Of a stretch of 64,000 nt of DNA, positions 49,762 to 64,000 are shown one piece after another. A program made the translations under genes and the position numbers. This DNA comes from Acidobacteriota bacterium (GTDB taxonomy: Bacteria > Acidobacteriota > Vicinamibacteria > Vicinamibacterales > UBA2999), in the NCBI GenBank assembly GCA_947482665.1, contig CANKJK010000007.1:1-64000 (forward strand), given 5' to 3'. Position 1 is the first letter of the stretch; every line of letters starts with the position of its first letter. Under the pieces are notes generated by a model. It searched no databases and was not told the DNA's origin. It was given only the letters and a program-made list of their open reading frames with translations.

Positions 49762-50727
49762 CTACCGGGGACGTTCGATGAGTTCAATGACCATCCGATC
49801 GGGGCCTTCGATAAAGGCCGCCATCGTGTGTGAGGTCCCGAAACGGTGGGGCCCCTCAAGAACCGTGACGCCCTGTGTTTTCAGGCGCGACAGCGTGCCC
49901 TGGAGGTCGCGCACGCTCAGGCCCACATGATCCAGTACGCGCCCCTTGGGCGACACCAGCGGTCCTTCCGAGTCCACGGCCACCTGGCTCAGGGCTGTGA
50001 GCCGCTGGTGGGGGTAGATCGACACCAGGATGGACCCGGCCAGCAGCCTGACGTTCGGTTCATGAATCTGGTTGGCGGGGTCATGGCGTGGCCGGAAGGG
50101 CACGTGGCAGTCACTGCCGCCGTCGGGATTGGTGATACCCACAAGGCCCAGCCCCAGCACCTTCTGATACCAGTCCGAGGCACACACCGGAGCCTCGCTC
50201 ATCAGGTGGACGTGATTGAACGAGCTGGAGGTGAGCCCTCCGCTTGTCCCACCTTTCCCGGGCGCGATTTCGATGTCGTTGCCGTCCGGTCCGACCATGT
50301 GGCCGGAGGGCGGAGGCACCCGGAAGAACTTCACGCCCAGGGAGGACAGGCGGTCGTAGTCCGCCTTCGCGTCGGCCGTGTTCCAACCGAAGTGCCAGAA
50401 GGGGGTATCCCACTCTGCGGACGCCTTGGTGGCGACCTTATTGAACAGGATGAGCACATTCTCGGAGCGCACCCCGGACATGCCGGCCTCGACGTGCCGG
50501 GTCGCCTTCCAGAAGGATGTGACATAGAACGCCGTCGACGCTTCCGGGTCGACGACGTTCATGTGGACGTGATGGAAGTCGATGTCCCCGGCTGACCCTG
50601 GGACTGGCGCTGATCCGGAGACCGGCGCCGCCCCGGACGCCGGTGGAGTCTGGGTGCGGACGGGACTCGCCCCGAGCATCAGGACCGCCACGACGGGCAG
50701 CCAGAGGGTGGAACGCATCGGTGTCAC
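49762..50727 (-). CDS. Secreted VOC-superfamily (glyoxalase/dioxygenase-like) protein
   Basis: This protein has a signal peptide (RSTLWLPVVAVLMLGASPVRTQ) and about 320 residues with two VOC-fold modules, starting at HHVHMNVVDPEASTAFYVTS and FNHVHLMSEAPVCASDWYQK, with a later LDHVGLSVRDLQGTLSRLKT. VOC proteins use paired beta-alpha-beta-beta-beta units to bind metals for isomerase, lyase or dioxygenase chemistry. Histidines and glutamates in metal-like positions are present, but the reaction cannot be told. The GTG at 50727 is preceded by GAGGAG five bases away; an ATG at 50718 is an alternative. It is directly downstream of the PQQ dehydrogenase gene. Confidence 0.82.
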   Translation of the reverse strand: MTPMRSTLWLPVVAVLMLGASPVRTQTPPASGAAPVSGSAPVPGSAGDIDFHHVHMNVVDPEASTAFYVTSFWKATRHVEAGMSGVRSENVLILFNKVATKASAEWDTPFWHFGWNTADAKADYDRLSSLGVKFFRVPPPSGHMVGPDGNDIEIAPGKGGTSGGLTSSSFNHVHLMSEAPVCASDWYQKVLGLGLVGITNPDGGSDCHVPFRPRHDPANQIHEPNVRLLAGSILVSIYPHQRLTALSQVAVDSEGPLVSPKGRVLDHVGLSVRDLQGTLSRLKTQGVTVLEGPHRFGTSHTMAAFIEGPDRMVIELIERPR

Positions 50728-50763
50728 GGTTGCTCCTCTGCCGGCCACGCCGCCGTGTGCCGC

Positions 50764-52761
50764 CTACTTCGCTGCCTTGCCTCCGACCGCCAGGGCGACC
50801 ATCTCGGTCGTCTCGCCTGCGCCAATGGCCGTCACGATGTACTGCCGGCCCTGGTGGAGATACGTCATCGGAGGGGCCGCCGACTCGCCGTCGAGCCGGA
50901 TCTCCCGCAGGAGTGTACCGCTGGTCTTGTCATAGACGAACAGCAGCTTCTTCATCATGTCCGGGTCGCCGTACTTGACCCAGGGCGGCGGAATCGACTG
51001 ACCGGCTGATTCCAGGCGCTGCGCGTTGATGAACAGCAGCGACTTGGTCAGCAGCACACCGAGCCGTGGGATCTCGTCACCCATCGGGCCAACATTCAAC
51101 CCCTTGAGCAACGGGTGATTGATCGGGCCATTCCCCACGGGCGTTTGCCACCGGATCTCGCCCTTGTTCATGTCGATGGCCGACACGCGCGAGTACGGCG
51201 GCTTGAAGATCAGGAGTCCGTCAATCCGTTGCAGCGCGTTGAGATTCGGGCCTCCCGGAGCACCACCGGACCGGAAGAAGAAGTTCGTCTGCTTCGGATC
51301 CCCGGGACCTACGCGATAGACCGTCGGCAGCATCCGAGACGGCACGTAGAACATCTGCGTCTCGGGGTCGAACGCACCGCCGCCCCAGTTCGCCCCACCG
51401 AACGTGCCAGGCAGGTACAGGGTGCCCTTCTCCGAGGGCGGTGTGTAGACCGGTCCGTGCTCGAAGAACTGCAGGTTCTCCAGTGCCTGCTTCCGCAACG
51501 CCGGCGTGAAGTCAATCAGGTTGTCTTCCGTCGTGCCCTGCATGTCAAAGGCCGGCGGCTTCGTCGGATGCGGTTGGGTCGGTGACGTCCGCTCCCGGGG
51601 CACCTTGGACTGGGGTACGGCCTTCTCGGGAATCGGCCACACGGGCTTCCCGGTCTTCCGGTCGAACACATAGGCAAACGCCTGCTTGGTCACCTGGATG
51701 ACGGCCTTGATCTTCTTGCCGTCCACGGTGATGTCCGCCAGCACCGGCTGCGCGGGCAAGTCGTAATCCCAGAGACCGTGATGCACCACCTGGAAGTGCC
51801 AGACGCGCTTTCCGGTCTTCGCATCCAGGCACACCAGCGTTTCCGTGAAGAGCGTGTTCCCAGGCCGATGGCCCCCGTACGAATCGTTCGTTCCGCCGGA
51901 CACCGGCAGATAGATGTAGTTCAGCTCGGGGTCATAGCTAATTCCGGCCCACACGTTCGTGTTCCCGGAGTACTCCGCGGCCCCTTCGAGCCACGTCTCA
52001 TAGCCGAACTCCCCCTTATGGGGCACGGTGTGGAACGTCCACAGAAGCTTGCCCGTCCGGACGTCGAAAGCCTTGACGTCACCTGGCGGCATTTCCTTTG
52101 TCGAGGTCGGGTCCATGATCGAGTTGCCGATCACGATGACATTGCCGGCAATGAGAGGCCGGCGGCCCATGAAGTTCTTGGTGCGGACAGCGTCGCGAAT
52201 GCCGAGTGTGAGGTCGATCCGGCCACTCTCACCGAAGGCCGGATCGGGCTTGCCCGTCTTTGCGTCGATCGAGATCAGATAGGCGTCGTTGGTGCCTTCG
52301 AAGATGCGCTCGACCTTGCCATCCGTCCAATAGGCCAGGCCCCGGTGGATGAACCCTGAATTGGCAGGCTTCCCGCTCTTGTACACCTCAGGGTCATAGA
52401 CCCATCTGGTCGTCCCGGTCGCGGGATCAATCGCACCCACCATGCCAAGCGGCGTGATGCTGTAGAGCGTGCCGTTCGCGTAGAGCGGGGTGTCTTCGTT
52501 TCTGGTCGACTTCATCAACGGGTCGGAGGTCTGCACACCCCGGTCCGGTGACGGCCACCGCCACGCGATGTCCAGCTTGTCCAGATTCTCCGCATTGACC
52601 TGCGTGAGGGGTGAGTACTTGGTCCCGCCGAGGTCGCCGCCGTACTCACGCCACTCCCCGTTGCCGGGGGCGCCCTTCTGGGCGCCCACCGGCAGCGAGA
52701 ACATGACGCACGAGGCGACCGCGACCGAGGCCGCGAGGAACACCGTGCGTGTCTTCGTCAT
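50764..52761 (-). CDS. PQQ-dependent dehydrogenase (quinoprotein), secreted
   Basis: The 665-residue protein from the ATG at 52761 has a signal peptide (FLAASVAVASCVMFSLPVGA) and an eight-bladed quinoprotein beta-propeller with typical blade motifs: SPLTQVNAENLDKLDIAWRW, GAIDPATGTTRWVYDPE, and LDAKTGKRVWHFQVVHHGLW. The family oxidises alcohols, aldose sugars or aldehydes in the periplasm with PQQ and calcium. The sequence resembles the membrane-type glucose/quinate dehydrogenase propeller without membrane helices or a fused cytochrome domain. Electrons may go to the cytochrome c encoded at 58 kb. It begins two bases after the Oar stop. Confidence 0.88.
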   Translation of the reverse strand: MTKTRTVFLAASVAVASCVMFSLPVGAQKGAPGNGEWREYGGDLGGTKYSPLTQVNAENLDKLDIAWRWPSPDRGVQTSDPLMKSTRNEDTPLYANGTLYSITPLGMVGAIDPATGTTRWVYDPEVYKSGKPANSGFIHRGLAYWTDGKVERIFEGTNDAYLISIDAKTGKPDPAFGESGRIDLTLGIRDAVRTKNFMGRRPLIAGNVIVIGNSIMDPTSTKEMPPGDVKAFDVRTGKLLWTFHTVPHKGEFGYETWLEGAAEYSGNTNVWAGISYDPELNYIYLPVSGGTNDSYGGHRPGNTLFTETLVCLDAKTGKRVWHFQVVHHGLWDYDLPAQPVLADITVDGKKIKAVIQVTKQAFAYVFDRKTGKPVWPIPEKAVPQSKVPRERTSPTQPHPTKPPAFDMQGTTEDNLIDFTPALRKQALENLQFFEHGPVYTPPSEKGTLYLPGTFGGANWGGGAFDPETQMFYVPSRMLPTVYRVGPGDPKQTNFFFRSGGAPGGPNLNALQRIDGLLIFKPPYSRVSAIDMNKGEIRWQTPVGNGPINHPLLKGLNVGPMGDEIPRLGVLLTKSLLFINAQRLESAGQSIPPPWVKYGDPDMMKKLLFVYDKTSGTLLREIRLDGESAAPPMTYLHQGRQYIVTAIGAGETTEMVALAVGGKAAK

Positions 52762-52763
52762 GA

Positions 52764-55700
52764 CTAGAAGTCGATCCGCGCGTTGAACTTGTAGAGACGC
52801 GCCGCCAGAATCGAACTCGGCCGCCACAGACCCGTGGCCGTCGAGTTGGCGTAGGTGTTATTCAGCACGAGTACGTCGTTCTTGTTCATCAGGTTGTAGA
52901 TATCAAACCCGACGCGGAACTTCGCGGACTTGGTGAGGTCAAACGCCTTCGTGAAGCGCACGTCCAGCTGGCTGGCCCGCGCTTCCCGATTCGTGAAGGG
53001 CTCAAGCAGCCCAATGGTCCGCGTCAGCGTGCACGTGCCGGTCGCAGGGCACCCGGACAGGTTGCGGCCGAGCGACGGCGCGATCGCGGCATTACCGACG
53101 GCAAACGTGGCCGACCGCTCGCTGCCCGGCAGGTTCTGATAGATCACCGAGGCACCGATGCCCCAGATGATGGGATAGGTGGCGTTGAGCTTCACCTGAT
53201 GCTGGGCGTTCGCCGTCTTGCAGAACCGATCGTTCACGTTCGGCGCCGCCGTCTCCAGATAGAAGTCCGGCCGATCGACCACCGTGCAGTTGTTGATGTC
53301 GGACACGCCAAGGCTCACGCCGCCGTTCAGCATGCCCTTGCCGCCCTTGCCGAACTTCGATCGGAAGGCGATGTCCATTCCGTTGAACACCTCGGTCCGA
53401 CCATCTTCGGTCCGCACCAGGCGATTCACCTGACCGAACTTCGCGGGGTTGAGATCGTAGAGACCGCAGATCTGCGACCCGCTCGTCGAGCCCAACCGCG
53501 TGTCGGTCGGCGCCGTGATGCAGAACTGGTCGTAGTCGGCCGAGGTCACCGACAGGTTGTCCGTCACGGTGACGTTGCCGTACCAGGTACGGAAGTACCC
53601 GACCGACAGGCCCATGCCCTTGCCGAGTTCCTGCTGCACGATGGCATTCGCCTGATAGTTGAACGGACGCACGCCGAAGCCCTTCAGGAAGTCCGGGTCA
53701 TAGCGCAGGTTGAACACCGAGGTCCCGAAGGTCGCGGAGCTGACCGCGCCGCACTCACCGTTGGCCGCATTGCTCGTGAGCGCGCAATCCGGCACGAAGT
53801 CACCGTTCGCATCCGCCCACGACCGCGTCACGCTCGCAGCCAGCGCAGCAGCCGGGCTGGTCGCCGTCGCGATGTTGAGCGACTCGGAAATCACGTACCG
53901 GCCGAACGCCGCCTTGATGGCCGTCTTGCCGTTGCCGAATACGTCGTAGGCCGCACCGAGACGCGGGTTGATGTCCTGCCAGTCGGGCACGCCCTTCACC
54001 GCGGCAAACTTCAGCTCGCCGAGGAATGGACCGGCCGGACGCACCGTGGCCGGATTGGTCACGTGCAGCTTGTCGTAGCGCACACCCAGGTTCAACGTGA
54101 GACGCTTCAGCGTCCACTGGTCCTGGATGAAGAGACCCATATTGAGGTCGACGTTGCTCCAGAACCCGCCTTCAGGGCCGGCGATCTGGGTAATCTGCGA
54201 GGGCGTCAGCGAGCCATCCGCGTTCTGCCGGAACTCGTACCGGACAGGCGGATTGTTCGCCTGGCCGAACGCCGGATTGCGGCCGGAAAGGGTCTGCCAC
54301 CCCATCTTCATGGCGTGCGAACCGGTGATGTAGCTCATCGCACCCGCGGTGTTGTACTGATCCGACCGACCGAAGTTGCCGAAGCCGCCGGTGCCCGGCA
54401 CGCTGATGAACGCGTTGTACTGGAGACCGGTCGTCAGGTTCAGCATCGCGATCGTCGCGGGCGTCACTTCCTTCTGACGCTGATTGATCACGGGCGCATT
54501 GCGTGACGCGAAGCCCAGCTCAAAGAGCAGCTTGTTGGTCTGCGGGCGGTTCCAGTTGATCTGGGTCAGGAAGGACGGCCCGATGATGAAGTCGATGGTC
54601 GTCTCGGGTGCGCGCGTCGCGCTGATACCGTTAAAGCAGGAGCACGACTTCTGCACCGTGAACACACCGGAAATCTTGTTCTTGGGTGACGCCTGGAACG
54701 TCAGGCGCGAGGTCGTGTCCTTGACCCAGGCCTGCGTCTCGCCAGGGCGATTGGCGTCCGCCCGGAACGTCGAGGTGCCACGGAACGCTTCCTGGTTGTA
54801 GAAGACTCCGCCGAGTTGTTCCCGATTGCCCCAGAGACGCAGGGACGTGTTGAACCAGAACTTGTCCTTCTTGATCGGACCGCCGATCCCAACGCCGACC
54901 GCGTAGATTTCCTGGATCGCGTTGGACAGCGTCAGGCCGCGGCCGCGCAGTGCGTCACTGAGATTGGTGCCCTGCAGAGAGTCGTTGGTGTACTCAAAGT
55001 CGCCAAGGCCCTTCACGGCGTTGCCACCCTCCCGCAGAATCAGGTTGGTGGAGACGCCACCGGTCTCGGTCTCAGCGGTCTGGCTACCCGTCTCCAGCAC
55101 GGATTCCTGAATGGCCGCCTGGTTGGGATGGAAGCGGCGCGACGCGCCCGTCGCGGAGAGGGAGTTGGTCTTCATGCCCTCGATGTTCAACGCACCGTCG
55201 GTCCGGCTGCCGTGAATCTGCGGCGCCGTCACACCCTCGCCGTTGTTGCCGCCCACGTCCCGGTTACCCGACGGACCGGTAAACCCACCGCCGCCGCTGG
55301 CGCCCAGCGTCAGCGCGGTCATACCGATGAAGTTGCGCGCGGTCGGCACATCGTTCAGCACCTGCGCCGAAATCACGTTTTGCGCGCGGACGTTCTGGAC
55401 GTCCACGATCGGACTCGCGCCCGTCACCGTGACCGTCTCCTCCATCCCGCCGACCCGCATCTCGGGGCTCACGTTCGCCGTGAAGCCGCCTGTCAATTCA
55501 ATCCCCTCACGCTTGAAGGTATTGAAGCCTGGCAGCGTGAATGTCACCGTGTAGGTGCCGGGGCGCAGGTCAACAATCTTGTAGTTGCCCGACTCGTCGG
55601 TCACAACCGAACGAACCTTTTCAATCAGCGCCGGACTGGCCGCCTCAACCGTCACACCGGGCAACACGGCCCCGGTCGTATCCTTCACCACGCCGGCAAC

Positions 55701-55793: not shown

Positions 55794-55826
55794 TCTGGCC
55801 CTCTCCCTTTCCAGTCAAGACGCGAA

Positions 55827-55836
55827 GTACCCGTAC
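55827..55836. promoter_or_regulatory. GTAC repeats in the divergent control region
   Basis: GTACCCGTAC lies in the gap between the Oar gene and the regulator gene, and a further GTAC lies at 55786-55789. GTAC half-sites are common in HxlR operators, so this is a candidate binding site for the adjacent regulator. Evidence is limited to the pattern and position. Confidence 0.35.
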
Positions 55837-55927
55837 AACCGCCACACCCCGTCCAGGACCGGGCGGAAAGCCCAGCGATTCTGGGCGGACTGAGCCGTTC
55901 GATCAAGTGGTATGCACAAGGAAACCG

Positions 55928-55956
55928 TTGTATCCGCCCGCAGCCCTCGCTAGGAT
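55928..55956 (+). promoter_or_regulatory. Possible leaderless promoter of the HxlR-VOC gene
   Basis: TTGTAT (55928-55933) and TAGGAT (55951-55956) are separated by 17 bases, and the -10 ends five bases before the ATG. The mRNA would begin at or near the start codon. Each hexamer has two or three mismatches. Confidence 0.4.
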
Positions 55957-55961
55957 TCAGC

Positions 55962-57251
55962 ATGCCCGAGGCCCACGCAGACGACGCCAGACTCCTGTTC
56001 CAGCGTCTCGGCGAGAAATGGACCATCCCGCTGCTGGGCGCCCTCTCCGAGCACGCCCACCGGTACTCGGAGATCAAGCGACGTTTCCCACTGACCTCCA
56101 AGGTGCTGAGCCGCACCCTGTCGGCCCTGCAGCAGGACCACCTGGTCACCCGGGTGGAGTCGCCGTCCGTGCGCCGCTCAGTCACCTACGAACTCACGCC
56201 GGCCGGCCGGCGGCTCATCGAATTTGTCCGCGGTTTTGCCCAGGACCTGCCCGCCGCATCGTCAGCCGTGGCACCCGCCCTGCGGCGAGGCGGCGCCACC
56301 CGCGAGACGCCCGTGCATTCCGCCGGGCCCAGGAACCACTCGCTCAACCAACTCGATACTGACCTGAACTTCCGGATGATCACGATCGCCACGCGTGACC
56401 TCGTGCCCCACGCCCACCGCCTCGGAACCATCCTGGGTGTCACGCCGCTCGCCGGCACTGACCTTCCGATTGAACTCCCGTCTGGGGGGAGCGCCCAACT
56501 TCGGCTCTCCGGCCTGCCACTCGGCGCGTTTTCCATCACACTCGCGCAGCCGCTCGACGACCGGCTGCCCCACGCCGCCTTTCTGTCCACCCACGGCACA
56601 GGCATCCACCATCTCGGTTTCGATACCACGGCCAACCTCGATCAGGTGGTCCCGGAACTGCGCGGCATGGGGGGCACCTGGACTGTCGGAGGTCGCGGCG
56701 CGGCCTATGCCCAGTTGGACTTCCGCGATCAACTGGGAGCCGCCATCGGCATCCTCAGCAGTTGGGGGCGGGAGGCCACGCCCGTCTCGGCGCCCTCGAC
56801 CCAGGTCCCCGGAGGGATGGAACTCCCCTCGCGCCACCGCGTGACCAACGTGGGGGTGATTGTCCGCAGTATTGAGGAGACGGCGCGCGCCTATGCGGAG
56901 ATCTTCGGACTGGGGGTCTCGCCAATCCGGGCCGTGGATCTGGCGTTACCTGGTGTCTCCATCGTGAGCCATGGGTCCGCACGGGTCGCCTACCTCCGCC
57001 TCAGAGGCGTCGCGGTCAAGCTGATCGAACCGCTCTCCGAGGGGCCCCTGTCGACCGTGCTCGACCAACACGGAAACCGCGCCCACCATCTGGGCTTCGA
57101 TGTCGGCCGCTCCTTCACCGCCGTGCTGGAACGGCTGGAGTCGCTCGGTGGATTCATCCTGTTGGGCCGGCGGGATCTGGGCTATGTCCTCGTCGACTTC
57201 AGGGAATCGATCGGCCTCGTGCTGGAGCTCACGGGCTCTCCGGTCCACTGA
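55962..57251 (+). CDS. HxlR-type regulator fused to two VOC domains
   Basis: The 429-residue protein has an N-terminal HxlR winged-helix (1-95: LLFQRLGEKWTIPLLGALSE, HRYSEIKRRFPLTSKVLSRT, YELTPAGRRLIEFVRG), a linker rich in Ala and Arg, then two VOC modules, about 138-268 and 295-428. Each VOC module contains the motif HHLGFD (216-221 and a second copy near 377). There is no cysteine anywhere in the protein, so thiol redox sensing, common in HxlR proteins, is excluded. It probably senses a small molecule through the VOC part. It is divergent from the Oar/PQQ/VOC operon and followed after one base by a small secreted-protein gene. Confidence 0.88.
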   Translation: MPEAHADDARLLFQRLGEKWTIPLLGALSEHAHRYSEIKRRFPLTSKVLSRTLSALQQDHLVTRVESPSVRRSVTYELTPAGRRLIEFVRGFAQDLPAASSAVAPALRRGGATRETPVHSAGPRNHSLNQLDTDLNFRMITIATRDLVPHAHRLGTILGVTPLAGTDLPIELPSGGSAQLRLSGLPLGAFSITLAQPLDDRLPHAAFLSTHGTGIHHLGFDTTANLDQVVPELRGMGGTWTVGGRGAAYAQLDFRDQLGAAIGILSSWGREATPVSAPSTQVPGGMELPSRHRVTNVGVIVRSIEETARAYAEIFGLGVSPIRAVDLALPGVSIVSHGSARVAYLRLRGVAVKLIEPLSEGPLSTVLDQHGNRAHHLGFDVGRSFTAVLERLESLGGFILLGRRDLGYVLVDFRESIGLVLELTGSPVH

Positions 57252-57252
57252 T

Positions 57253-57951
57253 ATGCGGCGGACACTGCTCCTGGCGTCGCTGGCCGCCCTCCTGAGCGTG
57301 GTCACCCCACTCTCCGCCGAGGATGCCCTCGACGGCCTGCGCAATGCCGTGTTCCAGGCCCGCTCCGCCATCGCGTCTCTCCGCACGGGAGACTTCCGCC
57401 TGCGGGGCGAACTGACGCTGGACCTTGATGCCGCGCAACAGGCCCTCGATGCGCTGGCCGCTCGTGCTGCCACAGGTGCGATGCCCGCCCCGGCCGAGGT
57501 GGCGGCGATCCGGCAGCGGATTGAAGAGGCGCGGCGGCGGGCCAGGAGCACTGAAACTGTCACCGGCCAGGGACTTGGACCATCTGCCGTCGCGGGGCCA
57601 GCCCCCACGACGCTCCAGCCCCTCGACCTCCCCGCAGGTACTCCAGCGCGCATCCAACTGTTGCAGCGCGTGGACCCGGCTACCTCACAACCCGGGGACA
57701 TCGTGGAAGCGGTAGTGGTGGACGCGGTGACCGTCCAGGGCAGGATCGTGGCGCCCGTGGGCGCCCTGCTGAGGGGAGCGGTGGCCGACGTGGCGGGTCA
57801 CACGCGCCTGGCGCTCAACCAGATTCAGATCGGCTATGCGTCGTTTCTGGTGGGCGGAGGCACCGCCCTGCCATCCGAAGCGGTGCTGTCTGCGGGCTCC
57901 ATCCTTCGGGTGGAGCTGTCACCGCCCGCACGCGCCACGGACCGCCGGTAG
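57253..57951 (+). CDS. Small secreted protein of unknown function (TrbI/VirB10-like C-terminus)
   Basis: The 232-residue protein has a signal peptide (LLLASLAALLSVVTPLSA), an N-terminal helical part (about 25-95) and a C-terminal beta-rich domain with PAGTPARIQLLQRVDPATSQ and GRIVAPVGALLRGAVADVAG. The second part resembles the TrbI/VirB10-like cap found in many acidobacterial secreted proteins. No enzyme motif is visible. It begins one base after the regulator stop, so it is likely cotranscribed with it. A cytochrome c gene is convergent, with a six-base gap. Confidence 0.6.
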   Translation: MRRTLLLASLAALLSVVTPLSAEDALDGLRNAVFQARSAIASLRTGDFRLRGELTLDLDAAQQALDALAARAATGAMPAPAEVAAIRQRIEEARRRARSTETVTGQGLGPSAVAGPAPTTLQPLDLPAGTPARIQLLQRVDPATSQPGDIVEAVVVDAVTVQGRIVAPVGALLRGAVADVAGHTRLALNQIQIGYASFLVGGGTALPSEAVLSAGSILRVELSPPARATDRR

Positions 57952-57957
57952 CCGCGG

Positions 57958-58389
57958 CTACTTCTTGCCGAACAGGATCTGGGCGGAATCCGCCGGATTC
58001 TCACTGAGGGCCTGCCCCGGCTGGTATCCGTTGGCCTTCAGCAGGAACGCCACGATATCCGCGTACTGCTGCGGCGTCAGGGACCCGGGGTTGTCGGCAG
58101 GCATCGTCGCCTTGATGATCTTGTGCAGGTCGCCGAGCTTGCCGTTCTCCCAGCGAAGCCCGAACGCATCGCCGTTCAGCGCGGGCGCAAAACTCTCGCC
58201 CCGCAGGTCGGACATGTGGCAGGAGGCGCAGGCCTTTTCGTAGGCCTCGGCCCCGCGGGTGGCTTGTTCTGCCGTAAAGACGCCGTCGCCGACCTTCCTG
58301 CCCTGCGCGTGAGCAACCAGCCCGGTCGCGGCGAGGGTGGTGCCCAGCACCAGATAGCGAAACGACTTCGTCCGTATGTGCAGGTTCAT
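57958..58389 (-). CDS. Periplasmic c-type cytochrome
   Basis: The 143-residue protein has a signal peptide (SFRYLVLGTTLAATGLVAHA) and a single heme-binding motif CASCH, with a downstream methionine in TMPADNPGS that can act as axial ligand. It is a class I monoheme cytochrome. I chose the ATG at 58389 because GGAG lies nine bases upstream; an ATG at 58398 would add three residues but places the GGAG directly on the start. It may accept electrons from the PQQ dehydrogenase encoded 5 kb away, as such pairs do in other bacteria, but that link is inference. Confidence 0.88.
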   Translation of the reverse strand: MNLHIRTKSFRYLVLGTTLAATGLVAHAQGRKVGDGVFTAEQATRGAEAYEKACASCHMSDLRGESFAPALNGDAFGLRWENGKLGDLHKIIKATMPADNPGSLTPQQYADIVAFLLKANGYQPGQALSENPADSAQILFGKK

Positions 58390-58455
58390 GGGTTTCATCT
58401 CCGCGGTCCGGCGGGCCATCACCAGTGTCGTGCGCTCACCGCCCCGGCCGCCCGC

Positions 58456-58461
58456 ATTGTA
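58456..58461 (-). promoter_or_regulatory. Possible -10 element of the cytochrome gene
   Basis: TACAAT on the minus strand sits directly after the hairpin that ends the upstream gene and about 67 bases before the cytochrome ATG. No good -35 is visible, and the hairpin overlaps the spacer. Confidence 0.35.
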
Positions 58462-58496
58462 GCCGGAGGGCGCGGGCAGCGCCCTCTCCCTCCGGC
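58462..58496 (-). terminator. GC-rich hairpin after the first CBM9/DUF5916 gene
   Basis: GCCGGAGGG and CCCTCCGGC form a perfect nine-pair stem around a 17-base loop that can itself pair. It lies 15 bases beyond the stop codon of the minus-strand gene at 58512 and before the cytochrome gene. There is no U-run. Confidence 0.55.
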
Positions 58497-58511
58497 ACGG
58501 ATCGCACAGGT

Positions 58512-60731
58512 CTAGTACCGGAGGAGCTTGGTCAGTTTCACGACGAACGTGCGGTTCTGCAGTTCCGCGAAGCGATCCGGAATGGCGGTCGTCCGGCCTT
58601 CGGTGTAGACCACATACAGATCGCTGCCAGGGATGTACTCCCAGCGCAGCCGGGTATTGGTCGAGAACGCGTGTGTGGCCTGGTTGAACTGGAGCAGCGT
58701 GCCGAGCGTGGCACGCGGGCTGAGCGTGTAGCTGACCCGGCTCTGCCACAGGTGGGTCCTGAAGGTGCCGGCCGGCAGATTGACCCAGTTCAGCGAGACC
58801 GTCGGCTCGACGATGAACTGCTTGGTCACCTCGATCCGCCCGGCGTAGGACACGGTCCGCTTCGTCCCGTTGTAGAACTGCCCGAGGTCCGTCCGGATGG
58901 TGCCGCGGATCCGAAACGACGGCGGCAGGGTCAGCGACGCCTGGGCATGCGTGAAGCCATAGCCCCCGACAGGAATACGCACGCCGCTGGCGACCTGGAA
59001 CGGCTGCAGCAGGCCTTCGTACTCCTTGTCGACCGAGGACGTGAATGAGCCGCCGCTCACCAGGTCGGAGTTGAAGCCCGCGGCAAGGCCACGCGACTGC
59101 AGATTCCCTTGGTCGTCGGTCGTGTAGTCCCCGTTGAACGTGTAATAGAACTTCCTGAACGGCCTGAAGTGCGTGCCGCCTCGCTTCGGCCTTGGGCTGA
59201 ACCGAGCCGTCAGTGCCGAGGTCCGGAAGTTGGTCCGGCGCAGGAAGCCCATCTCGGGATTGAAGTTCCGGTCCACGACCAGGCGCTGAACGTTCACCCC
59301 GTAGCGGTCCGCGTTGTAGTCATAGCGGGCCATGTACGACAGGTCGTTGCCGTCCCGCCCCGGAGTATCGGTTCGGGCCAGATAGGCATTGACCGTCGTG
59401 AGTCCGATGGCGATGTTCGCGTCAGCCCCCATCAGCACGTTCTCGCGTCCGCTGGACGGCGCCCGGCGCGTTGCCATGACGCCCACGTAGCTCTTCCGAA
59501 GGATGTCCCGCCGCAGGCGAACGACGCCGAAGTTCGTGGACGGCTCCTTGATGGCCCCGGCCGCCTCCGACTGAATGTCGAGCGCGCCGACGAGATAGGA
59601 GCCGGCCTTCCCCGTCACGCGGCCGCCGCCGACGATGGGCACCGGTGTGCCGCGCGCGAGGCCAATCTGCCGGCTGAAAAACATCGTCGGAATGTCGCCG
59701 CCGCCGGCCGTGCTGCTGCCGCCACCGAAGTCGAAAATCGCCTGGCCTTCCAGGAAGAACGTGCGTTTCTCCGGGAAGAACACACCAAAGCGCGTCAGGT
59801 TCACCTGCTGGAGGTCGTCCTCCACCTGGGCAAAGTCCGTGTTGTAGGTGAAGTCAGCGGTAACACCCTTCGTGACACCGACTTTGAGGTCTCCACCGAC
59901 ATCAGCCGCGCCCTTGTTGTTCACCGCTGGCCTGACGACACGGTCGGTGGTGGTGCGGGCTGTCACATACGGAATCACATCGAGCGTTCGGCCTGCGGCG
60001 GGCACCTTCAGCCCTGTCAGGGTGGCCTCATCCTGCAGCCGGTACACGCCACTGGCCCCAATCGAGGTGGGGATCTTCGTCAGGTAGGTGGACTCGTTCT
60101 TCCATCGGATGATGCGACGGAGGTTGAAGCCCCAGGTCTGGTCGGTGCCGGCCGGATACCGGATCGACTTGAACGGAATCGCCACTTCCGACGTCCACCC
60201 GCCCTCGAACCGCGCACCCTTGGGATTCCAGACCGGGTTCCACTCGCCGTTGGCCTGCGTCTCGCTCTGAAACTGCACGTCCCTGCGGGCACCGAGCGGG
60301 TTCGTCATGAAGTAGTACCCGCTGCGGTGGTCGTGGAACGTATCGATGACGATGGAGATGTTCTCGTTCTGAACGATGTCCTGGGACGCGTCGTGACGCA
60401 TCTCGTTGATGATCATCCGTTCCGGATGGCTGTCCCACATCCGGAAACAGAAGTAGATGTTCTTGTCGTCGTAGAACACCCAGAACTCGGTCCGCTCGGT
60501 GGAGGGCTTCCCGGCGTCGGGCTCCTGCTGAATGAATTCAAACGGCGCGGGCGCGATGGTCTTGTAGATCTCCTCGTCCAGGCGGCCGTCGATTCTGAGG
60601 CCGCCCGGCGGCACCGGGTGCGCCTGCACCACGGGCCGCACCTCGCTTGTCGGCGCAGGCTGGGCGTGTGCGGCCGCTCCGGCGGCGAGGAGAAGAAGCA
60701 GAACGGGGTACGGCGCGACGATGCGTGGCAT
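58512..60731 (-). CDS. CBM9-like/DUF5916 outer-membrane protein, paralogue 1
   Basis: The 739-residue protein from the ATG at 60731 has a signal peptide (APYPVLLLLLAAGAAAHA) and an N-terminal carbohydrate-binding module 9-like domain (about 35-225: GGLRIDGRLDEEIYKT, MWDSHPERMIINEMRHDASQ). The DUF5916 part follows, with a predicted beta-barrel. The signature NTDFAQVEDDLQQVNLTR is identical to that of the neighbour. Such proteins are common in Acidobacteria and Bacteroidetes, and their function is unknown; binding or passage of a polysaccharide or related ligand is plausible. The longer frame upstream lacks support. It is 52 bases from its paralogue, in tandem. Confidence 0.84.
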   Translation of the reverse strand: MPRIVAPYPVLLLLLAAGAAAHAQPAPTSEVRPVVQAHPVPPGGLRIDGRLDEEIYKTIAPAPFEFIQQEPDAGKPSTERTEFWVFYDDKNIYFCFRMWDSHPERMIINEMRHDASQDIVQNENISIVIDTFHDHRSGYYFMTNPLGARRDVQFQSETQANGEWNPVWNPKGARFEGGWTSEVAIPFKSIRYPAGTDQTWGFNLRRIIRWKNESTYLTKIPTSIGASGVYRLQDEATLTGLKVPAAGRTLDVIPYVTARTTTDRVVRPAVNNKGAADVGGDLKVGVTKGVTADFTYNTDFAQVEDDLQQVNLTRFGVFFPEKRTFFLEGQAIFDFGGGSSTAGGGDIPTMFFSRQIGLARGTPVPIVGGGRVTGKAGSYLVGALDIQSEAAGAIKEPSTNFGVVRLRRDILRKSYVGVMATRRAPSSGRENVLMGADANIAIGLTTVNAYLARTDTPGRDGNDLSYMARYDYNADRYGVNVQRLVVDRNFNPEMGFLRRTNFRTSALTARFSPRPKRGGTHFRPFRKFYYTFNGDYTTDDQGNLQSRGLAAGFNSDLVSGGSFTSSVDKEYEGLLQPFQVASGVRIPVGGYGFTHAQASLTLPPSFRIRGTIRTDLGQFYNGTKRTVSYAGRIEVTKQFIVEPTVSLNWVNLPAGTFRTHLWQSRVSYTLSPRATLGTLLQFNQATHAFSTNTRLRWEYIPGSDLYVVYTEGRTTAIPDRFAELQNRTFVVKLTKLLRY

Positions 60732-60783
60732 ATACCCGCCCATTCTCCCACGCGGAGGACGCCCGGAGGCACCCGGGCCCGGC

Positions 60784-63015
60784 TCAGTATCGGAAGAGCC
60801 GTGTGGCCTTGACGACGAACGTGCGGTTCTGAAGGTCGGCGAATCGATCCGGGATCGCCGTCGTGCGGCCCTCGTTGTAGACCACGTACAGGTCGCTGCC
60901 CGGGATGTACTCCCAGCGGAAACGTACGTTGGTGGAGAGGGTCCTGGCGGATGAGCTGTACTGGACGAGCGCTCCAAACGAACTGCGCGGCGTCAGAGTG
61001 TAGGTGACGCGGCTCTGCACCAGGTTGTTCTTGAAGGACCCCGCCGGCAGGTCGACGAAATTGAGCGACAGCGTCGGCTCGACCGTCAACTGCTTGGAGA
61101 GCTCGATGCGCCCCGCGTAGCTCACCGTCTGTTTCGTGCCGTTGTAGAACTGTCCCAGGTCCGCACGCACCGTGCCGCGCACCTTGTAGTTGGCCGGGAA
61201 CTGATACGAGGCCTGCACATGCGTGAAGCCGTAGGCGCCGATCGGGATACGGACGCCAGGCGCAATCTGGAAGGGCGCCTCGAGGCCTTCGTGCTCCCGA
61301 TCGATCGAGGATGTGAAGATGCCACCGCTGTTCAGATCGAAGTTGAAGGCGCCGGTGACGGACCGCGACTGGAGGAAGCCGGCGTTGTTGGTGGTGCGAT
61401 CCGACTGTGCCAGGTAGTAAAACTTCCGGAACGGCTTGAAGCGGGTGCCGCCCCTGGCCGGCCTCGGGCTGTAACGGAACGACCCAGACACCGTCCGGAA
61501 GTCCTGCCTCCGCATGAACCCCATCTGGGGGTTAAAGTTCTTTTCCACCACCAGGCCCTGACCCGTCGCCCCATACCGGTCGGCGTTGTAGTCGTACTGC
61601 CCCATGTAGGAGCCGTCGTGCCCAGAGCGTCCCGGCGTGTCGGTTTTGGCGTAGTACGCATTGATTGTGGTCAGGCCAATCCCGATGTTCGTGTCGGCAC
61701 CCACCATCAGATTGTCCGCGCCTCCTGAGGGGTTGCGTTGCGTGGCGAGCACACCGATGTAGCTCTTCTTCAGAATGTCCCGCCGCAACCGGACCACACC
61801 GAAATTCGTCGACGCTTCCCGAATCGCATCGGCCTTCTCCGTCTGAATGTCGACCAGGCCGATCGTGTAGTTACCGGCCTTGCCCGTCAGGCGGCCCCCG
61901 CCGATGATCGGCACGGCCGTGCCGCGCGCAAGACCAATCTGGCGGCTGAAGAACATCGTCGGAATATCTCCAGCGCCGGCATTGTTTCCGCCGCCTGACT
62001 GGCCACCGAAGTCAAAAATGCCCTGCCCTTCCAGAAAGAAGGTGCGCTTCTCCGGGAAGAAGACACCGAAGCGCGTCAGGTTGACCTGCTGGAGGTCGTC
62101 CTCGACCTGCGCAAAGTCCGTGTTGTAGGTCAGGTCCGCGGACAGCCCCTTCGTCACGCCGTACTTCAGGTCGGCGCCGACGTCTCCCGCGCCCTTGTTT
62201 GTGATGGGTGGCCGGGCCACCTTGTCCGTCGTCGTCCGCGCCGTCACGAACGGGATGATGTCCAGGTTCTTCCCGGCCGCGGGCACCTTCAACCCCACCA
62301 GCGTCGCCTCATCCTGGAGGCGATAGATGCCCCCCGCGCCCGTCGACGCCGGCACCTTGGTGATGAACGTGATCTCGTTCTTCCACCGGACGGCCCGGCG
62401 GAAGTTGATACCCCAGGCCTGGTTCGTCCCGGCCGGATAGCGGATCGACTTGAACGGGATCGCGACCTCCAAGGTCCAACCGCCCTCGAACTTCTGCGCC
62501 TTGGGATTCCAGACCGGGTTCCACTCCCCGTTGTTCTGCTTTTCGCTCTGGAACTGGACGTCCCGGAGGGCGCCCAGCATGTTCGTCATGAAGAAGTAGC
62601 CGCTGCGGCTGTCGTGGAACGTGTCGAGGACAAACGACATGTTCTCGTTGTTGTAGATGTCCAGGGCCTGATCCCGCCGCATCTCGTTTGCGATCATCCG
62701 TTCCGGATGGCTGTCCCACATCCGAAAGCTCAGGTACAGGTTCTTACTGTCAAAGAGCACCCAGAGCTCGGTCTTCTCCGTCGCCGGTTGACCTTCGAAG
62801 GGCTCCTGCTGAACGAATTCGATGGCGCCGGACACGGTCGTGTAGACCGCCTCATCCAGTTTTCCATCCACTTTGATGCCGTCCGGCACCTCAATCGCCC
62901 GGATCACGGGTTTCGCCCCGGGGGCTGCCGGGGGCTGAACCTGGGCTCGTGCCGCAGCAGACAGCAGGAGCAGGACGGAGAAGGCAGTGGCGGTCCGGGC
63001 GAGGCTCGGTGTCAT
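60784..63015 (-). CDS. CBM9-like/DUF5916 outer-membrane protein, paralogue 2
   Basis: The 743-residue protein from the ATG at 63015 has the same layout: signal peptide (AFSVLLLLSAAARAQ), CBM9-like domain (GIKVDGKLDEAVYTT, MWDSHPERMIANEMRRDQAL) and a DUF5916 beta-barrel that ends LQNRTFVVKATRLFRY, compared with LQNRTFVVKLTKLLRY in paralogue 1. Long stretches are identical to paralogue 1, so the pair arose by tandem duplication and then diverged mostly in the N-terminal half and in surface loops. Transcription runs into paralogue 1. A -10-like TATACT lies about 60 bases upstream on the same strand. The upstream in-frame extension to 63531 is antisense to the peptidase gene and not supported. 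Confidence 0.84.
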   Translation of the reverse strand: MTPSLARTATAFSVLLLLSAAARAQVQPPAAPGAKPVIRAIEVPDGIKVDGKLDEAVYTTVSGAIEFVQQEPFEGQPATEKTELWVLFDSKNLYLSFRMWDSHPERMIANEMRRDQALDIYNNENMSFVLDTFHDSRSGYFFMTNMLGALRDVQFQSEKQNNGEWNPVWNPKAQKFEGGWTLEVAIPFKSIRYPAGTNQAWGINFRRAVRWKNEITFITKVPASTGAGGIYRLQDEATLVGLKVPAAGKNLDIIPFVTARTTTDKVARPPITNKGAGDVGADLKYGVTKGLSADLTYNTDFAQVEDDLQQVNLTRFGVFFPEKRTFFLEGQGIFDFGGQSGGGNNAGAGDIPTMFFSRQIGLARGTAVPIIGGGRLTGKAGNYTIGLVDIQTEKADAIREASTNFGVVRLRRDILKKSYIGVLATQRNPSGGADNLMVGADTNIGIGLTTINAYYAKTDTPGRSGHDGSYMGQYDYNADRYGATGQGLVVEKNFNPQMGFMRRQDFRTVSGSFRYSPRPARGGTRFKPFRKFYYLAQSDRTTNNAGFLQSRSVTGAFNFDLNSGGIFTSSIDREHEGLEAPFQIAPGVRIPIGAYGFTHVQASYQFPANYKVRGTVRADLGQFYNGTKQTVSYAGRIELSKQLTVEPTLSLNFVDLPAGSFKNNLVQSRVTYTLTPRSSFGALVQYSSSARTLSTNVRFRWEYIPGSDLYVVYNEGRTTAIPDRFADLQNRTFVVKATRLFRY

Positions 63016-63073
63016 GGCAGGGGGCTGCGGTCGGCAGAAAAAGGGGGTTTCCGGGGACGAAAAATCCCGGCAA

Positions 63074-63079
63074 GTATAG
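63074..63079 (-). promoter_or_regulatory. Possible -10 element of the DUF5916 pair
   Basis: TATACT on the minus strand matches five of six consensus bases and lies about 60 bases before the start at 63015, in the 141-base gap shared with the divergent peptidase gene. No matching -35 hexamer was found. Confidence 0.35.
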
Positions 63080-63156
63080 CTCCGTCCAGCACTTCCCCGC
63101 CCGGTCCCCGGTGTGATACCGTCAACAGATTCCGGGCCGTCTGGCCCCAACCTCAC

Positions 63157-64000
63157 ATGGCAGCACGCCGATACACCATTCTGATCGCTGATCGCACCAC
63201 CGGCACGGTCCGTCGGATGACGCTTGCGCGCCGGTCGACGCTCTCCGTGGCGGCCGTGATTCTGGCGCTGCCCGTTCTGATTGGTCTTGGGGCCGCCTGG
63301 AAGGCCAAGGCCGACGTCGCAGATCTGGCCGAGAGCCACGCCGCCCTGCAGATGGAGAACGCCAACTACCGCGCGGCCACCGAGGCCCTGGCCGAACAGA
63401 TCGCCTCGCTGCAATCTGCGGTGTCTGACATCAACTCGAACACCTCGCTCGACCCGAGCGTCGCCAAGTCGCTCGACAAGCTGCCCGCGATCGTGAAATC
63501 CCGTGCCATCGGCGGTGGAACCGAGGTGCAACGGACGGCACAGAACGCCGCCTTCGCGTCGATGGTCAATACCGAAGACACCTTTGGGCTGATGCGGACG
63601 TTGCTGGAGTCGATCGAATCTCGTCTCTCGTTGGTCCGAACGGCCGTCGACCGGCGGAACGCACTCGCGGCGGCCACGCCCTCAATGTGGCCGGCGCATG
63701 GCTGGCTGACGTCAGCCTGGGGTCCGCGCACCGACCCGGTCAAGGGCGGCGCGGACTTCCACCCCGGTCTGGATATCGCCGGTGAACGCGGCCAGGCCGT
63801 TTTTGCGACGGCCAGTGGCAAGGTGACCTTCTCCGGCTCCAACGGGGATTACGGCAACATGATCGTGCTCGACCACGGCTTCGGTCTGCAGACCCGTTAT
63901 GGTCACCTGCTCGCCTCAAAGGTCAAAGTCGGGGACCCAGTCAAGAAGGGCGACCAGATTGGCCAGGTTGGCGCCACGGGTAAGGCCACCGGGTACCACC
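63157..64000 (+). CDS. M23-family metallopeptidase (3' partial)
   Basis: The gene runs off the window end after 281 codons. The N-terminus has a short cytoplasmic stretch, a membrane helix (LSVAAVILALPVLIGLGAAW) and a coiled coil. A LytM/M23 domain starts near residue 180 with the zinc motif FHPGLDIAG (HxxxD), then YGHLLASKVKVGDPVKKGDQ and GKATGYH, where the last histidine of the HxH pair is cut off. These are endopeptidases of peptidoglycan or their inactive scaffolds. The intact HxxxD suggests an active enzyme. The ATG at 63157 lies in the gap divergent from the DUF5916 gene. Confidence 0.93.
   Translation, partial: MAARRYTILIADRTTGTVRRMTLARRSTLSVAAVILALPVLIGLGAAWKAKADVADLAESHAALQMENANYRAATEALAEQIASLQSAVSDINSNTSLDPSVAKSLDKLPAIVKSRAIGGGTEVQRTAQNAAFASMVNTEDTFGLMRTLLESIESRLSLVRTAVDRRNALAAATPSMWPAHGWLTSAWGPRTDPVKGGADFHPGLDIAGERGQAVFATASGKVTFSGSNGDYGNMIVLDHGFGLQTRYGHLLASKVKVGDPVKKGDQIGQVGATGKATGYH

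What the first reader, a model, noticed from the sequence alone, without database searches (positions are those of the whole stretch)
55794..57251. Cysteine-free HxlR-VOC-VOC fusion regulator with a divergent receptor/oxidase operon
The regulator joins a winged-helix of the HxlR type to two VOC modules. No cysteine is present, so the usual redox sensing of this family cannot apply, and the two VOC units, each with HHLGFD, may form the ligand site of a one-component sensor. The divergent operon encodes an Oar receptor, a PQQ dehydrogenase and a secreted VOC enzyme, so the sensor may recognise a substrate or product of that secreted VOC protein. I know of no described regulator with this layout, but I cannot search for one. 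The start appears leaderless.
Basis: partly seen in the sequence, partly recalled or inferred. Interest (0 to 1): 0.8.

Follow-up and report, generated by a model that had tools for sequence, protein, structure and literature searches.

The report
HxlR–double-VOC fusion regulator beside Oar
An Acidobacteriota genome encodes a rare gene-control protein in which a common DNA-binding domain is joined to two copies of an enzyme-type domain that has lost most of its metal-binding residues, so it probably senses a small molecule and controls the nutrient-receptor genes beside it.

Summary
ORF 55962-57251 (+), 429 aa, joins an HxlR winged helix (residues 16-90) to two VOC domains and has no cysteine. 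It stands divergently, 168 bp from an Oar-type receptor–PQQ dehydrogenase–secreted VOC gene set. The start is not leaderless: AGGA lies 6 nt before the ATG.

The fusion is rare. One other member turned up in 43 family, 193 class and 396 phylum genomes (overlapping samples) and a limited scan of 84,980 species: ND5_Bin_3_1, 33% identity over its full length. It too lies about 0.1 kb divergent from an Oar receptor, but that receptor is not orthologous to the window's. None of 19 other Oar genes examined had a recognised DNA-binding regulator as nearest upstream neighbour.

The VOC half is related to secreted tandem-VOC proteins abundant in these genomes, not closely to the operon's own VOC protein. 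Both window domains have lost metal ligands (M/T/H/G and N/K/H/E).

Best reading: a one-component sensor whose effector module derives from a secreted VOC family, controlling the divergent Oar operon. Its ligand is unknown. A link to the secreted VOC's substrate is not supported: in the second genome the PQQ-dehydrogenase orthologue has a TetR-type neighbour instead. No experiment supports any regulatory role.

The parts
55962..57251 (+). HxlR-VOC-VOC fusion regulator, 429 aa
   Evidence: homologue L009/L070
56007..56231 (+). HxlR winged-helix domain, residues 16-90
   Evidence: PF01638 54.8 bits; PDB sequence relatives include 1yyv, 5hs7 YodB and 7bze HxlR
56367..56780 (+). VOC domain 1, about residues 136-273; ligand positions M139/T193/H217/G263 (metal set lost)
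   Evidence: PF13669; alignment with secreted tandem-VOC paralogues
56820..57248 (+). VOC domain 2, about residues 287-429; ligand positions N296/K353/H376/E422 (incomplete)
   Evidence: PF13669; AF2 model pLDDT 84; best PDB match 3gm5, a putative methylmalonyl-CoA epimerase, Z 11.9, rmsd 3.4 over 132 residues
55952..55955 (+). Shine-Dalgarno-like AGGA, 6 nt before the ATG
   Evidence: Sequence
55794..55961 (.). 168-bp divergent intergenic region, presumed operator/promoter; no significant palindrome found
   Evidence: 78 of 200 shuffles reach the best palindrome score
52764..55793 (-). Oar-type outer-membrane receptor with CarboxypepD_reg domain, divergent from the regulator
   Evidence: PF13620 63.6 bits; closest relative is paralogue G000:C10:56134, 65%
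50764..52827 (-). PQQ-type quinoprotein dehydrogenase (PF01011)
   Evidence: 617 bits; G029 orthologue 77%
49762..50748 (-). VOC protein with signal-peptide-like N-terminus; H/H/E present in both domains
   Evidence: close orthologue only in G029 among 43 family genomes
57253..57951 (+). Protein of unknown family with signal-peptide-like N-terminus, 1 nt after the regulator's stop; possibly co-transcribed
   Evidence: No Pfam or NCBIfam match; spacing from sequence
57958..58749 (-). c-type cytochrome (PF13442); true start probably internal
   Evidence: orthologue beside the VOC gene in G029

Best explanation
The ORF encodes a cytoplasmic one-component transcription regulator. Its HxlR winged helix binds DNA, probably as a dimer, in the 168-bp divergent region. 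Its two VOC domains act as a binding module for a small ligand and no longer as a complete metal enzyme. Ligand binding would alter DNA binding and so switch the divergent Oar receptor and the genes behind it (quinoprotein dehydrogenase, secreted VOC protein), and probably the regulator itself. The effector module came from a family of secreted tandem-VOC proteins, by loss of the signal peptide and fusion to an HxlR DNA-binding domain. Shown: architecture, kinship, loss of metal ligands, recurrence next to Oar genes. Inferred: DNA binding, ligand sensing, the target operon, the direction of the evolutionary fusion, and whether it represses or activates. The ligand is unknown.
For: Both domain types score above Pfam cut-offs, in the window protein and in the homologue. 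VOC fold for domain 2: AF2 pLDDT 84; Foldseek E 8e-8 and VIA-align Z 11.9 to 3gm5. No signal peptide, unlike the secreted tandem-VOC relatives. The two regulators' VOC halves group together (95/95) within that relative set, and the G029 HTH is the window HTH's nearest relative in the class sample, which fits one fusion event. Ligand quartets: window M/T/H/G and N/K/H/E; several secreted proteins H-E-H-E (or H-D-H-E). Both known regulators are divergent from an Oar gene at about 0.1-0.17 kb. None of 19 other Oar genes had a recognised HTH gene as nearest upstream neighbour. The PQQ dehydrogenase, VOC, cytochrome c and DUF5916 genes have orthologues in G029 (77, 56, 57, 59%), where a TetR gene stands between the dehydrogenase and the DUF5916 gene; in the window the Oar-regulator pair, the 57253 gene and the cytochrome c gene stand between them.
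Against: Only two members are known, so any conservation argument rests on one comparison. The two Oar partners are not orthologous: G029's is 91% identical to G000:C2:68973, which has no neighbouring regulator. The dehydrogenase/VOC set is not linked to the regulator in G029 as far as contigs show. No operator-like palindrome was found in the window intergenic region. The G029 homologue keeps H/E/H/E in its first VOC domain, so it may bind metal or even be catalytic there. The full-length single-sequence model was unusable (pLDDT 34), so the pocket was not examined.
Confidence: 0.6

Rival explanations
1. The regulator controls only the Oar receptor, or only itself, and the dehydrogenase and secreted VOC behind the Oar are an older cluster into which the Oar-regulator pair was inserted.
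For: In G029 the dehydrogenase orthologue has its own TetR neighbour, the fusion regulator sits with an unrelated Oar on another contig, and the divergent partner is an Oar gene in both genomes.
Against: In the window the Oar, dehydrogenase and VOC genes are on one strand and packed closely enough to form one transcript.
Confidence: 0.25
2. A trigger enzyme: the VOC domains still catalyse a reaction and DNA binding is tied to turnover, as in PutA-like enzyme-regulators.
For: The VOC parts derive from a probable metalloenzyme family, and the G029 homologue keeps H/E/H/E in domain 1.
Against: Neither domain of the window protein has a complete ligand quartet (M/T/H/G; N/K/H/E).
Confidence: 0.08
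3. A chance or decaying fusion without regulatory function: the HxlR part is a relic and the neighbourhood is coincidental.
For: Very rare, two members only, and strongly diverged, 33% identity.
Against: Intact open frames of matching length in two genera; conserved HTH residues (LQQD, TR.ESP); coding-type codon composition; the same divergent Oar arrangement twice.
Confidence: 0.07

Closest known systems
HxlR-type regulators (B. subtilis HxlR and YodB, S. aureus QsrR)
   Same: Winged-helix domain, PF01638; PDB sequence matches 1yyv, 5hs7, 7bze, 4hqe
   Different: Those solved chains are about 107-131 aa with no effector domain, and the redox or aldehyde sensors among them use cysteines (own knowledge). 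This one is 429 aa with two VOC domains and no cysteine
Methylmalonyl-CoA epimerase / glyoxalase I group of the VOC superfamily (3gm5, 3rmu, 3hdp)
   Same: VOC fold and HH motif
   Different: Metal-ligand set incomplete in both domains; fused to a DNA-binding domain
Secreted tandem-VOC proteins of the same bacterial family (e.g. L010 1246-2238; G000:C26; G029:C309)
   Same: Two VOC domains in the same order, about 30% identity
   Different: They carry signal-peptide-like N-termini and no HTH; several keep full ligand sets in both domains
Metal-free VOC drug-binding proteins such as the mitomycin-resistance protein MRD (1kmz)
   Same: VOC fold (Z 8.8); a metal-free VOC pocket that binds a ligand (own knowledge)
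   Different: Stand-alone and not DNA-binding

Membership tests
HxlR regulator family | HxlR winged-helix domain above the curated cut-off | tested here: met
   PF01638 54.8 bits against 20.8
HxlR regulator family | Sequence-specific DNA binding as a dimer | not testable with these tools
   No experiment; no palindrome in the window intergenic region above chance
HxlR regulator family, redox/electrophile subgroup | Cysteine-based sensing | tested here: not met
   No cysteine codon in the ORF
VOC superfamily | VOC domain match and fold | tested here: met
   PF13669, two stretches, 65.7 bits; domain 2 model pLDDT 84, Z 11.9 to 3gm5; domain 1 fold not modelled separately
VOC superfamily, metal-dependent enzymes | Complete metal-ligand set per domain (MMCE scheme H, Q/E, H, E; positions from own knowledge of MMCE) | tested here: not met
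   M/T/H/G and N/K/H/E by alignment; the G029 homologue has H/E/H/E in domain 1
Methylmalonyl-CoA epimerase | NCBIfam TIGR03081 above cut-off | tested here: not met
   38 bits against 114.95
One-component transcription regulator | DNA-binding and ligand-binding domain in one chain | tested here: inconclusive
   Both domain types present; ligand binding untested

The most novel reading that the evidence does not exclude
A new one-component sensor class in which a tandem VOC module, taken from a secreted metal-dependent protein family and stripped of its metal site, serves as ligand sensor for Oar-receptor loci and pairs with different Oar genes in different genomes.
Probability: 0.4. Interest if true: 0.6.

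Novelty: new variant of a known kind. Interest (0 to 1): 0.42.

Why it matters
Oar-type receptors are present in about twenty or more copies per genome in these bacteria, and their substrates and control are largely unknown. A dedicated regulator with its own binding module beside one of them would give a direct way to find a ligand. It would also show an enzyme fold from a secreted protein family reused as an intracellular sensor. Broader weight is limited by the two known members.

Tried and rejected
Single-sequence AF2 of the whole protein was uninformative (pLDDT 34).

A long HxlR open frame in G059 (L077) is not a VOC fusion, and neither is the HxlR gene of G000:C8.

Phage and plasmid collections gave HTH-only matches. 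The first scan of genome contigs with the single protein found nothing; the second, with two HTH patterns, found the G029 record and an HTH-only actinomycete match.

Sigma-70 and terminator scans of the intergenic region found nothing. The G029 palindrome (GTTACCA-GG-TGGTAAC, 9 of 200 shuffles) has no counterpart in the window.

The idea that the two Oar partners are orthologous was tested and rejected. Eight paper searches found no description of this architecture; the library holds only open-licence papers.

Full report
Observation. The ORF at 55962-57251 on the + strand encodes 429 residues with no cysteine. Pfam places an HxlR winged helix at 16-90 and two Glyoxalase_4 (VOC) stretches C-terminal to it, both families above their curated cut-offs. 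Codon-position GC (0.71/0.50/0.82) is that of a coding frame. There is no in-frame ATG, GTG or TTG in the 71 open codons upstream. An AGGA lies 6 nt before the ATG, so the start is not evidently leaderless. On the other strand, 168 bp away, are a CarboxypepD_reg-bearing Oar-type receptor, a PF01011 quinoprotein and a two-domain VOC protein with a signal-peptide-like N-terminus.

Fold. The full-length protein alone gave no usable model. VOC domain 2, modelled with six VOC rows, reached pLDDT 84. It matches methylmalonyl-CoA epimerases and glyoxalases: 3gm5 at Foldseek E 8e-8 and Z 11.9, rmsd 3.4 over 132 residues. The N-terminal part matches solved HxlR-family chains by sequence.

Distribution. 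In the window's family (43 genomes) one other genome, G029, carries a full-length homologue (E 2.9e-59). No further fusion was found in the class sample of 193 or the phylum sample of 396. Fewer candidates per genome were scored in those larger samples, and the samples overlap. A two-pattern scan of 84,980 species found the same record, JAKFYA010000444.1, Acidobacteria bacterium isolate ND5_Bin_3_1. The homologue has the same architecture, is 33% identical over its length and has three cysteines, none in the HTH.

Origin of the VOC half. The window genome, G029 and G037 hold many two-domain VOC proteins with signal-peptide-like N-termini. The regulator's VOC half is about 30% identical to these. 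The two regulators group together with 95/95 support among 16 sequences. The VOC protein of the divergent operon is a much more distant relative (24 bits). Using the methylmalonyl-CoA epimerase ligand scheme (H12, Q65, H91, E141, from own knowledge), the window regulator reads M/T/H/G and N/K/H/E and the G029 regulator H/E/H/E and H/V/H/G. Several secreted proteins read H-E-H-E or H-D-H-E, some in both domains. The window protein is therefore unlikely to be a standard metal-dependent VOC enzyme.

Neighbourhood. In G029 the regulator is also divergent, by 105 bp, from a CarboxypepD_reg Oar gene. A tree of 41 Oar proteins shows that this Oar is the orthologue of G000:C2:68973-71909 (91% identity), not of the window Oar, whose nearest relative is the in-genome paralogue G000:C10:56134 (65%). 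G000:C2:68973 has a phosphate-transporter-like gene upstream on the same strand and no regulator. So the pairing of this regulator type with an Oar gene occurs with two different Oar lineages. As a control, the nearest upstream genes of 16 other Oar genes of the window genome and three of G029 were read. None was recognised as an HTH regulator: six were scanned against Pfam and the rest judged from sequence. With 22-27 Oar matches per genome in G000 and G029 among roughly 3,000 genes (estimated from genome size), an Oar neighbour by chance is well under 1 in 50. This is one independent observation only.

The other genes of the divergent set have orthologues in G029: quinoprotein 77%, VOC 56%; and of the genes beyond the regulator, cytochrome c 57% and DUF5916 outer-membrane protein 59%. 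Among 43 family genomes, close VOC orthologues occur only in G000 and G029, the same two that hold the fusion. In G029, however, the quinoprotein gene has a TetR-type gene beside it, then the DUF5916 gene, on a contig other than the regulator's. In the window the Oar, the regulator, the 57253 gene and the cytochrome c gene lie between the quinoprotein and DUF5916 genes. This may be a swap of local regulator, which would support control of the set in the window genome; it is inference. Contig ends cut the G029 Oar, quinoprotein and VOC genes, so their full order is unknown.

Mechanism. The most likely function is a one-component regulator in which the tandem VOC module binds a small ligand and modulates DNA binding at the divergent promoter. 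DNA binding, ligand, sign of regulation and target range are all untested.

Known or new. No paper with this architecture was found in the open-licence library. Both domain families are well known. The combination is a rare new variant of the one-component regulator kind.

Noticed in passing
G000 C4, C6, C7:125001, C11, C12, C13, C14, C26; G029 C56, C309; G037 C14, C18, C69, C174 (loci L027-L037, L039, L057, L061): Expanded family of two-domain VOC proteins with signal-peptide-like N-termini; several keep H/E/H/E in both domains, others have lost ligands. Function unknown.
   Followed up: partly
L066 990-9731 (G000:C2); L121 (G029:C193): Paralogous cluster of PQQ dehydrogenase, Oar, a VOC protein and cytochrome c without an HxlR gene; the Oar has an orthologue in G029:C193, also followed by a VOC-like gene.
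   Followed up: partly
L009 1415-1430: Palindrome GTTACCA-GG-TGGTAAC in the G029 intergenic region (9 of 200 shuffles as good), a possible operator. An 8-mer CAAGTGGT lies 58 bp (window 55904-55911) and 56 bp (L009 1409-1416) before the two regulator starts; weak.
   Followed up: partly
57253-57951: Protein of unknown family with signal-peptide-like N-terminus starting 1 nt after the regulator's stop codon; no Pfam or NCBIfam match.
   Followed up: no
58512-63531: Two adjacent outer-membrane proteins of the same kind, both 59% identical to a G029 protein that carries DUF5916/CBM9-like domains and lies near the quinoprotein orthologue.
   Followed up: partly
L070 3816-7795: DUF1552 and DUF1592/1588/1585/1587/1595 gene pair next to the G029 fusion regulator; a similar-looking pair lies beside a tandem-VOC gene in G000:C26 (L028).
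   Followed up: no
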